DNA from: Negativicutes bacterium
GTDB taxonomy: Bacteria; Bacillota; Negativicutes; Anaeromusales; Anaeromusaceae
Assembly (NCBI GenBank): GCA_009929485.1
Contig: SAAJ01000001.1
Span: 1 to 64,000, forward strand
Direction: 5' to 3'
DNA: 64,000 bases
Shown here piece after piece: positions 1-63,610 of this stretch (positions are counted from its first letter, which is position 1; each line of letters begins with the position of its first letter). A program made the translations under genes and the position numbers. Under the pieces are notes generated by a model that did no database searches, was not told the origin of the DNA, and saw nothing but the letters and a program-made list of their open reading frames with translations.

Positions 1-44
1 AAGTACTTGGCTGGAAGCGGCCTGGGAGGATAGGTAGTTGCCGG
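1..44 (+). rRNA. rrf: 5S rRNA, 3' end only (cut by window start)
   Basis: The first 44 bases match the conserved 3' third of Firmicute 5S rRNA: a GTACTTGGCTGGAAGC arm followed by GGGAGGATAGGTAGTTGCCGG, which ends the molecule. An intrinsic terminator follows within five bases, as expected at the end of an rRNA operon. The rest of the operon must lie to the left of the window. The exact 3' end is not determined. Confidence 0.88.
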
Positions 45-48
45 TTAA

Positions 49-84
49 GAAAAAGCACTCGCGAAGGCGAGTGCTTTTTCTTTT
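49..84 (+). terminator. rRNA operon terminator
   Basis: Perfect 14-bp stem (49-62 with 67-80) with a GAAG loop and a T-rich tail. The stem is extended by a second, outer 12-bp pairing between the 5S 3' end (34-45) and 85-96, so the inverted repeat runs over about 63 bases. Confidence 0.9.
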
Positions 85-206
85 ACCGGCAACTACCCCT
101 GTCTTTCTAAGGCCGCGCAGCGGCGTGCGACACGCCTGGACGGCGTTAGTGTCCTGAGCGCCATGGATGGCAAAGCGAAGGACGGGAGGGATAGGTAGGT
201 TGCCGG
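85..206 (+). repeat. structured palindromic element resembling a 5S tail
   Basis: This gene-free stretch can fold into one long hairpin. 86-93 pairs with 199-206 (8 bp), 94-97 with 194-197, and a GTCTTTC/GAAGGAC helix continues inside. A perfect GGCGTG/CACGCC hairpin lies at 122-136. Its 3' end, GGGATAGGTAGGTTGCCGG, is nearly the same as the 3' end of the 5S gene at 27-44, but the centre does not resemble 5S rRNA. It could be a degenerate duplication of the 5S end or a repeat element. 207-312 is AT-rich and I see nothing in it. Confidence 0.5.
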
Positions 207-312
207 AGTAGCTAAGCTGACTAGATGAGTTGATGTATAATAAGTTAATATTTTTTAAGTCTATAGTACATAAAGCTAGTTTATAGTAGCGTCCTTTCCC
301 GGCATCCCCGTC

Positions 313-561
313 AAAACAAGAGCTCGCTCAGCTCCTGCGCAGCCAGCTGAAAGGGAAATACGGGAACTCGCTGTGCTCAGACATCCGTATTTCTAATCCT
401 TTCAGCTGGCCTTGCAGATCCTGCGGACCGCTTCGCTTGCAAAAGTTTTGCCACAGACGCCGGGCGCGGACGGATGCCGGCATGCAAAAAGAAATACCTT
501 CCCGTCGGTGGGATTGGCGTTTCCTTCCCTGGCATCCGTAAGAGCCGCTGATTGAATGAGT
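313..561. repeat. long palindromic repeat, copy A
   Basis: About 160 bp (313-471) is roughly 90% identical to 705-863, and the similarity resumes at 509-561 against 927-980. The core is a hairpin: 343-354 pairs with 398-409 (12 bp) and 355-363 with 385-393 (9 bp), with a TAAT bulge and a 21-nt loop. No ribosome binding site or plausible gene is present. The spacer at 562-704 carries a further inverted repeat (about 581-594 with 647-661). Confidence 0.8.
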
Positions 562-704
562 GCATCGCCAGGGCGAGGAGCTTTTTCGTCTGACAAGAAA
601 GGGGGCTGCAGAAATAGCGGCGCTCTTTCAAGGTTTCCCTGACGTAGTCAGACGGAAAAAGAACCGTTCTGGCGTATGACAGGAATCAATTAGTGGTTCT
701 GCAA

Positions 705-980
705 AAAACAAGAGCTCGTTCAGCTCCTGCGCAGCAAGCTGAAAGGGAAATACGGGAACTCGCTGCGCTCAGACATCCATATTTCTAATCCTTTCAGCTT
801 GCCTTGCAGGCCCTGTGGACCGCTTCGCTCGCAAAAGTTTTACCACAGACGCCGGGCGCGGACGTTGGCTGCAAATTCTGCTAAAAGAGATGCCTACCTT
901 GTCAAAGGGAGGTGCGCGAAGCGCCGGTGGGATTGGCTTTTTTAGCTCGGCATCCAGTAAGAGCCGCTCATTCAATTAGT
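705..980. repeat. long palindromic repeat, copy B
   Basis: Second copy of the element at 313-561, offset by 392 bases in its first part and by about 418 in its last part, implying a 26-base insertion near 870-925. In the hairpin the C344-G408 pair of copy A is A736-T800 here, a compensatory change that keeps the stem. 981-1100 holds T/C-rich sequence with a dispersed 30-mer and no gene. Confidence 0.8.
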
Positions 981-48069: not shown

Positions 48070-48335
48070 ATATTGGGTTCTTATATAAAAATCCAAAGAC
48101 GCAAACTAGTATGTAAGAATAGGCTTCAGAGAGTTGGCGGTCGCTGTGAGCCAATGCCATGGACTTACGGAACTCTTTGCAGAGGAGCGGCGCTGAAGTT
48201 GCAGTAAGCGTTGCCGCGTCGCCGGCGTTATTGGTTGGAGAGGATGTCTGCGTTTGTTTAGGCATCAAGCAGGGTGGTATCGCGGGTGCTCTCGTCCCTG
48301 GCACAATGCCAAGGGGCGTTTTATTTTTTTTAGAA
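48070..48335 (+). promoter_or_regulatory. leucine T-box riboswitch of leuS
   Basis: The T-box consensus is plain: AGGGTGGTATCGCGGG at 48271-48286, followed by a terminator (CCCTGGCA / TGCCAAGGG, 48296-48317) and a T-run. Stem I occupies roughly 48120-48200. A CTC triplet (Leu) at 48173-48175 in GGAACTCTTT is the likely specifier. Uncharged tRNA-Leu should stabilise the antiterminator and switch on leuS. Confidence 0.9.
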
Positions 48336-62039: not shown

Positions 62040-62126
62040 GCGGTCGTGGCGGAATTGGCAGACGCGCTAGACTCAGGATCTAGTGAAGGCAACTTCATGG
62101 AGGTTCAAGTCCTCTCGACCGCACCA
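62040..62126 (+). tRNA. tRNA-Leu(CAG), copy 1
   Basis: 87 nt including encoded CCA. GCGGTCG acceptor pairs with CGACCGC, long variable arm, anticodon loop CTCAGGA (anticodon CAG). Confidence 0.95.
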
Positions 62127-62139
62127 ATCAATACTCTAT

Positions 62140-62225
62140 GCGGTAGTGGCGGAATGGCAGACGCACCAGCTTGAGGGGCTGGCGGGGGCAACCTCGTGAT
62201 GGTTCAAATCCATTCTACCGCACCA
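62140..62225 (+). tRNA. tRNA-Leu(GAG), copy 1
   Basis: 86 nt with CCA. GCGGTAG/CTACCGC acceptor, anticodon GAG in CTTGAGGG, long variable arm. Reads CTC and CTT. Confidence 0.95.
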
Positions 62226-62233
62226 AAAAAATG

Positions 62234-62265
62234 AAGCCTGCAAAATATTGCAGGCTTTTTTGTTT
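62234..62265 (+). terminator. terminator of the first tRNA cluster
   Basis: AAGCCTGCAA / TTGCAGGCTT with TTTTGTTTTTG. Confidence 0.88.
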
Positions 62266-62358
62266 TTGCATTTTGCAACATTAAAAAAGAAGAATATTGC
62301 GAAATATTGTGGTATACTGGCGATGTAAAAAACTATCTTATAGAAAAGAGGTGCGATT

Positions 62359-63207
62359 ATGACGCAAAATACTTTTTTTAAAACGAATGAGGAAATTCTT
62401 CAGGCTTTCAAATTGGTATTGCCGTATATGAACCGAATTGTGCGGGAGGATATGGCAGTCGGTTTGACAGACTGCAAAGAATACTTATCGTATTATCGTG
62501 CGAAAGAATTTGAACTGGATCTTCCTGCGGGGAAACCCATTAGCGGCATTGAAACGATTGAACGCTGTTTGTCAATGAAGCAAGACACCTTTGCCGATAT
62601 TCCGCCAGCGGTTTATGGGCGTCCAATAAAAACTATTTTTACGCCGATTTATGGGATTCAGGGCGAAGTAATTGGCACCTTGAGTTCTGGTATTGATTTT
62701 CAAAACAGTTTGCAGTTGATCAAGACGATCGAAGATCTTGCAGCAGATACTACGCAAGCTTCAGAGAGCATTGAACAAGTTGCTAAGAGCGTAGGCGAAT
62801 TAGCGAAAGCAGGGCAGGCGACCATTGGGCAAGCGCAATCGTTAGGTGAAAAAAATAGGCATACCGCTAGTATTTTGGAATTTATTCGGACCATTGCCGC
62901 GCAAACCAACTTATTGGGACTCAATGCGGCTATTGAAGCGGCTCGGGCGGGTGAACACGGCCGGGGCTTTGCGGTCGTGGCGGAAGAAGTGCGCAAGCTG
63001 GCGGATCAATCCAATGAGGCCGTAAAAAAGATTCAGGAGACGTTGCAACAAGTAAACGGGGCCATTGCAGAGATCAATCAATCGATTGAAACGACCGGAG
63101 CAATTAGTGAAGAACAAGCTGCGACAACCGAAGAGATTGCTGCTATTTTGCGGCAAGTGCATGAGAACATGAAAAATTTGGAGAACTTTGTTGAGCGATA
63201 TAAGTAA
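62359..63207 (+). CDS. soluble methyl-accepting chemotaxis receptor
   Basis: 282 residues with no membrane segment. An N-terminal sensory domain (about 1-120, with [20 protein letters not shown]) joins directly to a chemoreceptor signalling domain whose hairpin reads [20 protein letters not shown], then [21 protein letters not shown] cytosolic ligand or redox cue is likely, the signal unknown. AGAGGTG precedes the ATG. It sits between two tRNA-Leu clusters. Confidence 0.9.
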
Positions 63208-63244
63208 TTAGAAGGAATCGCTGTTTTCTTAGGCAAAGATTTTC

Positions 63245-63273
63245 TTGCATTGGCGCGAGGTCTCTGCTATAAT
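63245..63273 (+). promoter_or_regulatory. promoter of the second tRNA cluster
   Basis: TTGCAT, 17-bp spacer, TATAAT (63268-63273). Confidence 0.75.
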
Positions 63274-63316
63274 AGCCAACGTGGGTAAGCTGCTATTTGT
63301 GATGGCAGTTGGCTTT

Positions 63317-63403
63317 GCGGTCGTGGCGGAATTGGCAGACGCGCTAGACTCAGGATCTAGTGAAGGCAACTTCATGGAGGTTCAAGTCCTCTCGACCGCA
63401 CCA
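63317..63403 (+). tRNA. tRNA-Leu(CAG), copy 2
   Basis: Base-for-base identical to the gene at 62040-62126. Confidence 0.95.
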
Positions 63404-63422
63404 AACTCAATAAAGCCCTCTT

Positions 63423-63509
63423 GCGGTCGTGGCGGAATTGGCAGACGCGCTAGACTCAGGATCTAGTGAAGGCAACTTCATGGAGGTTCAAGTCCTCTCG
63501 ACCGCACCA
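63423..63509 (+). tRNA. tRNA-Leu(CAG), copy 3
   Basis: Identical to copies 1 and 2. Confidence 0.95.
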
Positions 63510-63524
63510 ACTTTATAGTTTCAT

Positions 63525-63610
63525 GCGGTAGTGGCGGAATGGCAGACGCGCCAGCTTGAGGGGCTGGTAGGGGCAACCCTGTGGAGGTTCGAGTCCTCTC
63601 TACCGCACCA
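63525..63610 (+). tRNA. tRNA-Leu(GAG), copy 2
   Basis: 86 nt, anticodon GAG. Differs from the gene at 62140 in the D-to-anticodon region, variable arm and T-arm. Confidence 0.95.

What the first reader, a model, noticed from the sequence alone, without database searches (positions are those of the whole stretch)
313..980. Tandem palindromic repeats with a compensatory base-pair change
Two copies about 250 bp long carry a 21-bp bulged hairpin. In the stem, C344-G408 of copy A is A736-T800 in copy B: both sides changed and pairing was kept, which suggests that the folded form is selected. The repeats lie directly after an rRNA operon and have no coding signal.
Basis: seen in the sequence. Interest (0 to 1): 0.6.

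Follow-up and report, generated by a model that had tools for sequence, protein, structure and literature searches.

The report
Pan-bacterial hairpin repeats with invariant cap
Two DNA repeats after a ribosomal RNA operon belong to a scattered family of long hairpins found in at least three bacterial phyla, whose arms differ from place to place yet still pair while a 19-base cap stays almost unchanged; this points to a folded nucleic-acid signal that has not, as far as could be found here, been described.

Summary
The two repeats (313-472, 705-864) are copies of a ~140-200 nt element. The window's genome has at least 34 loci with its loop motif; a complete congeneric genome has 19. Arms differ between subfamilies, yet pair (92 double-changed cells against 38 in shuffles). 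The loop AACTCGCTNCGCTCARACA occurs exactly in 13 of 299 genomes of the phylum (control 0) and in Pseudomonadota, Bacteroidota and others, capping long hairpins with unrelated arms (155 of 187 above the control).

The strand that seems to matter is the opposite one. Its loop TGTYT-GA-GC-GNA-GC-GA-GTT holds GCGNAGC, the published d(GNA) mini-hairpin, which explains the free N. Isolated arm mismatches there are G.T/G.A rather than A.C/C.T. Orthologous elements are more conserved than neighbouring genes. In the complete genome all 19 copies point the same way relative to replication.

Best reading (0.45): a dispersed DNA hairpin/cruciform signal recognised through its cap. The main rival is a structured RNA. 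Neither transcription nor a binding protein is shown. No Rfam match at curated thresholds; no paper found in the library searched.

The parts
1..46 (+). 3' end of a 5S rRNA gene, cut by the contig start
   Evidence: alignment to the intact 5S of a congener
47..82 (+). perfect inverted repeat (16-nt arms, 4-nt loop) ending in T-rich sequence, taken as the terminator of the rRNA operon; the repeats lie beyond it
   Evidence: I5; read from sequence
313..472 (+). copy A of the element, subfamily A (AAAAC 313-317 can pair with GTTTT 445-449)
335..417 (-). main hairpin of copy A; arms 335-363 and 385-417
365..383 (-). cap of copy A; - strand TGTCTGAGCACAGCGAGTT (GC-ACA-GC, a departure from the GNA consensus)
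   Evidence: read from sequence
503..561 (+). conserved 3' pieces of copy A's repeat unit (503-522, 538-561)
   Evidence: D2, D3
705..864 (+). copy B of the element, subfamily A (AAAAC 705-709 can pair with GTTTT 837-841)
727..809 (-). main hairpin of copy B; carries A736-T800
757..775 (-). cap of copy B; - strand TGTCTGAGCGCAGCGAGTT, with the d(GCGNAGC) core at 762-768 (GC-GCA-GC)
   Evidence: read from sequence
922..980 (+). conserved 3' pieces of copy B's repeat unit (922-941, 957-980)
   Evidence: D2, D3

Best explanation
The repeats are copies of a dispersed, structure-conserved DNA element: a long imperfect palindrome whose - strand folds into a hairpin capped by TGTYT-GA-GC-GNA-GC-GA-GTT. 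Shown: copies at dozens of loci per genome, arms that vary but stay paired, a near-invariant cap, a folding preference for one strand, strong conservation at orthologous sites, and one orientation relative to replication in this genus. Inferred: the cap folds on itself as the very stable d(GCGNAGC) mini-hairpin (sheared G.A with a single-base apex, two G-C pairs, tandem G.A pairs), as phage N4 promoter hairpins with C-GNA-G do; negative supercoiling or exposed single-stranded DNA lets the element extrude; and a protein, not yet identified, recognises the capped hairpin. Its role (mobilisation in trans, as with REP/BIME elements, or a chromosome topology or insulation mark in gaps beyond gene ends) is open; a trans-mobilised element since kept for a host function fits best. 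The one orientation in this genus may arise because the more stable hairpin strand is tolerated only off the lagging-strand template.
For: Loop motif at 34 places in the own genome and 19 in a complete congener at up to 1 mismatch, 0 for the reversed control. Exact loop in 13/299 genomes of the phylum and in named genomes of Pseudomonadota, Bacteroidota, Bacillota, Fusobacteria and others. Arms of one locus pair far better than arms swapped between loci (median score 54.7 v 17.9; 155/187 above the 99th percentile). Covariation within the genus. Isolated mismatches: on the - strand G.T 46 v A.C 9 and G.A 44 v C.T 8; one hairpin per contig, 38 v 10 contigs favour the - strand, p 6e-5; DNA energies favour the - strand in 138/155 hairpins and, with the loop neutralised, 136/155. 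Where arms are present, GC/GC 16/16, GA/GA 16/16 and GNA 17/20; N is A81 C41 T26 G8. GNA loops with at least two G-C pairs are extraordinarily stable in DNA (PMC4686876); C-GNA-G is needed for supercoil-driven extrusion of N4 promoter hairpins, where one strand's loop resists single-strand probes and the other's does not (PMC4496689). G.T is about as common as G.A and only 2.5 per 100 Watson-Crick pairs, against 12 G.U in 16 tRNAs, which is more DNA-like, though that alignment penalised G.T. Orthologous elements 93-96% identical against 86-91% in ORFs, five of five pairs. 19/19 copies co-oriented with replication in the complete genome. One near-empty site.
Against: No protein partner found: genes next to the motif are mostly housekeeping and Y1 transposases occur with or without it. 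The - strand bias is not visible inside this genus (A 5 v 10, B 5 v 5, C 13 v 6, GT v AC on +). The cap never shows compensatory change in its GC pairs, so its inner fold is not proved by covariation, and the DNA energy model does not fold the isolated loop. Copy A and several others have GC-ACA-GC. The replication-orientation effect is weak or absent elsewhere (79/133 positive local skew; facing pairs in Marinobacter, Haemophilus). Two chimeric copies pair an A-type 5' arm with a B-type 3' arm.
Confidence: 0.45

Rival explanations
1. A structured non-coding RNA or 3'-end RNA element, read from the - strand, whose loop binds a protein or RNA.
For: Strand-specific tolerance of G.U and G.A; covariation; conservation; on the - strand of copy B a small hairpin followed by a T run lies at 730-708.
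Against: No promoter-like site above chance near the copies; several copies lie beyond an intrinsic terminator of the upstream gene; no bias toward lying downstream of genes co-oriented with the - strand (46 v 41); G.U is rare and no commoner than G.A as isolated mismatch; a GNA triloop is much more stable in DNA than in RNA (own knowledge); no Rfam match at gathering thresholds.
Confidence: 0.27
2. A non-autonomous mobile repeat (MITE- or REP-like) kept only by its own spreading, with no host function; arms vary because copies are old.
For: Dozens of copies, patchy distribution over phyla, subfamilies, truncated copies, copies sharing flanks, a near-empty site.
Against: Orthologous copies are more conserved than coding genes around them, including a half-copy; no transposase among neighbouring genes; no clear target-site duplication seen at the one near-empty site.
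Confidence: 0.17
3. Palindromes kept perfect by template switching during replication (quasipalindrome correction), so that paired changes do not show selection.
For: It would give exactly the C344-G408 -> A736-T800 change in one event; the arms are long inverted repeats.
Against: The process treats both strands alike, yet mismatches are strongly strand-asymmetric in several phyla, and it does not explain an invariant cap or an asymmetric bulge about 9-11 bp from the loop.
Confidence: 0.08

Closest known systems
REP/BIME elements and RAYT (Y1) transposases
   Same: Dispersed intergenic hairpins, tens of copies per genome, sometimes inverted pairs ~200 bp apart (Marinobacter, Haemophilus)
   Different: Much longer arms, a 19-nt conserved cap, no association with PF01797 found
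Phage N4 virion RNA polymerase promoter hairpins
   Same: C-GNA-G cap; only one strand's loop is structured; arms partly free (PMC4496689)
   Different: N4 sites are short hairpins on a phage genome with a known polymerase; these are long, chromosomal, multi-copy and without a known reader
d(GCGNAGC) mini-hairpins (Hirao, Yoshizawa)
   Same: Identical core with N free (PMC4686876)
   Different: In the papers read here, studied as oligonucleotides and aptamer parts; here the core sits at the tip of a dispersed genomic repeat
Skipping-rope RNA (RF02924)
   Same: Long hairpin with conserved bases, found in several phyla (own memory)
   Different: Not matched by its covariance model in the scans made here
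Integron attC sites
   Same: Strand-specific folded DNA hairpins with variable arms (own knowledge)
   Different: No cassette array or integrase seen beside the copies looked at; attC sites have no invariant terminal loop (own knowledge)

Membership tests
REP/BIME with RAYT | Dispersed intergenic hairpin repeats in tens of copies | tested here: met
REP/BIME with RAYT | Dependence on a Y1 transposase in the same genome | tested here: inconclusive
   PF01797 in 34/40 genomes with or without the motif
REP/BIME with RAYT | Short (20-40 nt) hairpin | tested here: not met
   hairpin is 83 nt or longer
REP/BIME with RAYT | GTAG foot beside the hairpin | not tested
   not examined systematically
N4-type promoter hairpin | C-GNA-G loop on one strand | tested here: met
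   family consensus and copy B; not copy A
N4-type promoter hairpin | Cognate hairpin-reading RNA polymerase | not tested
   no search made
Rfam families, including skipping-rope | Covariance-model score above the gathering cut-off | tested here: not met
   permissive scans gave only sub-threshold matches, none to skipping-rope
Intrinsic terminator | GC-rich hairpin directly followed by a T run | tested here: not met
   the main hairpins are not among the sites found; the scan allows loops of 3-8 only, but no T run follows either hairpin in the sequence
DNA cruciform or extruded hairpin | Extrusion under negative supercoiling | not testable with these tools
   needs chemical or nuclease probing

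The most novel reading that the evidence does not exclude
A previously undescribed class of bacterial DNA signal: a GNA-capped hairpin with free arms, dispersed over chromosomes of several phyla, read as single-stranded or extruded DNA by a conserved but unidentified protein, and under selection at host loci.
Probability: 0.33. Interest if true: 0.85.

Novelty: new variant of a known kind. Interest (0 to 1): 0.66.

Why it matters
Dispersed palindromes are usually treated as lineage-specific relics. Here the same cap tops hairpins with unrelated arms in distant phyla, on one preferred strand, and orthologous copies evolve more slowly than neighbouring genes. That makes a structural DNA (or RNA) code testable: the cap can be synthesised as an oligonucleotide and used to fish for its reader, and copies can be deleted in laboratory strains that carry them.

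Tried and rejected
Palindrome correction by template switching as the sole cause (strand asymmetry). Loop complementary to rRNA: best match 11 of 19, not pursued (its shuffle control looked wrong and is not used). Y1 transposase association: none. Mobile or defence genes beside the motif: none. Rfam and skipping-rope RNA: no match. Literature search for the loop sequence: only chance matches such as primers; most subscription journals are not in the library, and the 224-RNA paper (10.1093/nar/gkx699) was not held. Stem compensation inside the cap: none seen, so sequence recognition rather than mere pairing is likely there. The organism was not identified by name.

Full report
What is in the window. 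Window 1-46 is the 3' end of a 5S rRNA gene (confirmed by alignment) and 47-82 a perfect inverted repeat that looks like its terminator. Two repeats follow on the + strand, 313-472 and 705-864, 94% identical, with further conserved pieces at 503-561 and 922-980. Their main hairpins (335-417, 727-809) fold far better than shuffled sequence as RNA and DNA. C344-G408 against A736-T800 is real. The same stem also has G387 -> A779, a C.A on the + strand and a G.T on the - strand. With 10 differences over 160 sites, one compensatory pair between two copies is suggestive only.

A family in the genus. DNA search found 12 matches in the window's own genome and matches in both other members of its genus, but in none of 37 more distant genomes. 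Profile search and alignment gave about 26 full copies in two subfamilies, A and B, with quite different arms that pair in each. On this alignment 89.6% of cells form standard pairs and 92 cells carry changes on both sides, against 37.8 in shuffles and 4-22 when the structure is slid. A third subfamily, C (TTGTATTTGAGAC ... GTCTCAAATACAA), adds about 30 more copies with its own arm changes: 12 pairs and 38 cells with double changes against 7.5 and 13.5 in shuffles. The shuffle control does not remove relatedness, so these figures are support and not probabilities. The pattern AACTCRCTNYRYTCARACA with up to one mismatch occurs 34 times in the own genome and 19 times in the complete congener, never in the reversed control, and in the window only at the two copies.

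A family beyond the genus. The exact loop AACTCGCTNCGCTCARACA is in 13 of 299 genomes of the phylum, 10 of 215 genera, with no reversed match. Nearly all lie between long arms that pair with each other but resemble no other locus. Scored from the loop outward, arms of one locus have a median score of 54.7 against 17.9 for arms taken from different loci, and 155 of 187 exceed the 99th percentile of that control. An asymmetric bulge sits about 9-11 bp from the loop on the 3' side. Some stretches of the viral collection carry the loop without arms and may be something else.

Which strand. Among isolated arm mismatches flanked by three Watson-Crick pairs, the + strand shows A.C 46 against G.T 9 and C.T 44 against G.A 8. 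On the - strand these read as G.T and G.A, the mismatches a folded strand tolerates best, while C.C and G.G are level (6 and 8). The bias holds per hairpin (34 v 5 and 39 v 7), in most groups taken apart, and with one hairpin per contig (38 v 10, p 6e-5). DNA nearest-neighbour energies favour the - strand in 138 of 155 hairpins, and in 136 with the loop replaced by a neutral one. Within the window's genus the bias is not visible.

The cap. On the - strand the loop is TGTYT-GA-GC-GNA-GC-GA-GTT. GCGNAGC is the published mini-hairpin class: a GNA loop, N any base, on at least two G-C pairs, Tm about 78 C for GCGAAGC (PMC4686876; also PMC6479982). This accounts for the single free position. Among sites with flanking arms the two GC and two GA steps were invariant (16 of 16 each) and the triloop was GNA in 17 of 20; N is A81 C41 T26 G8. 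Because the core never changes in a compensatory way, this fold is inferred and not shown. The closest functional precedent is phage N4, whose promoter hairpins need the C:G closing pair and the G and A of the loop for supercoil-driven extrusion, with one strand's loop structured and the other's not (PMC4496689). Copy B has the canonical GC-GCA-GC; copy A has GC-ACA-GC.

DNA or RNA. G.T is 2.5 per 100 Watson-Crick pairs in these arms and no commoner than G.A as an isolated mismatch, against 12 G.U per 100 in 16 tRNAs scored in the same loci. My alignment penalised G.T, which lowers the first figure. No promoter-like site stands out near the copies, and several copies lie beyond the terminator of the gene before them. 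This leans to DNA but does not exclude RNA.

Position, age and selection. In the complete congener dnaA is at 642 kb and GC skew changes sign there and near 2.34 Mb. All 19 loop copies have the + strand in the direction of the fork: p 4e-6 against even odds, about 0.014 if 80% co-orientation, as an assumed gene-like bias, is the null. Local GC skew agrees in 47 of 49 copies of the two genomes. Outside the genus the effect is weak (79 of 133). Copies are intergenic, mostly beyond the end of a co-oriented gene, and rarely between divergent genes. At five orthologous sites the element is 93-96% identical while neighbouring ORFs are 86-91%, which argues for constraint. One copy is absent at the orthologous place in the congener, leaving a few bases, without a clear target-site duplication. 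At the window's own locus the three species hold different arrays: A-A here, B then an A/B chimera in one congener, B-A in the other, so the array recombines, and the chimera shows that a broken outer arm can persist.

Conclusion. It is part of a dispersed hairpin family spanning phyla with a near-invariant cap. I take a DNA hairpin or cruciform read through its cap as most likely (0.45), a structured RNA next (0.27). The reader protein and the function are unknown. Nothing matching was found in Rfam at curated thresholds or in the open papers searched, but most subscription literature could not be searched, so prior description is possible.

Noticed in passing
window 86-208: A ~120-nt stretch after the 5S terminator begins and ends like a 5S gene (CCGGCAACTACC ... 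GGGATAGGTAGGTTGCCGG) but has an unrelated inside; it is present at the orthologous place in a congener (L047), so it looks like a conserved 5S-derived or 5S-mimicking palindrome.
   Followed up: partly
window 160-177: GCCATGGATGGCAAAGCG, a small palindrome also seen near another copy in the congener (L300 upstream flank, with changes); possibly a second dispersed repeat.
   Followed up: partly
window 62040-63610: Five tRNA-Leu genes (cag, gag, cag, cag, gag) within 1.6 kb, a locally duplicated tRNA array.
   Followed up: no
window 48087-48302: T-box leader, 133 bits.
   Followed up: no
L244 1939-2206 and 6175-6391; L169, L202, L192, L237: In Marinobacter, Methylophaga and Haemophilus the capped hairpins come as facing pairs about 200 bp apart, like BIMEs.
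   Followed up: partly
L314, L317, L328, L292, L305, L311, L326 (5' flanks): Several C-subfamily copies share 60 or more bases of 5' flank (GGCTGGAAAACCTAGAGTTATCAAGG...), so a longer unit was duplicated.
   Followed up: no
C-subfamily copies, 3' side (for example L314, L327): A pyrimidine-rich tail with repeated TACTCC / CCCTC units ending in TGTTCAA follows many copies and also occurs without the hairpin (window ~981-1075).
   Followed up: partly
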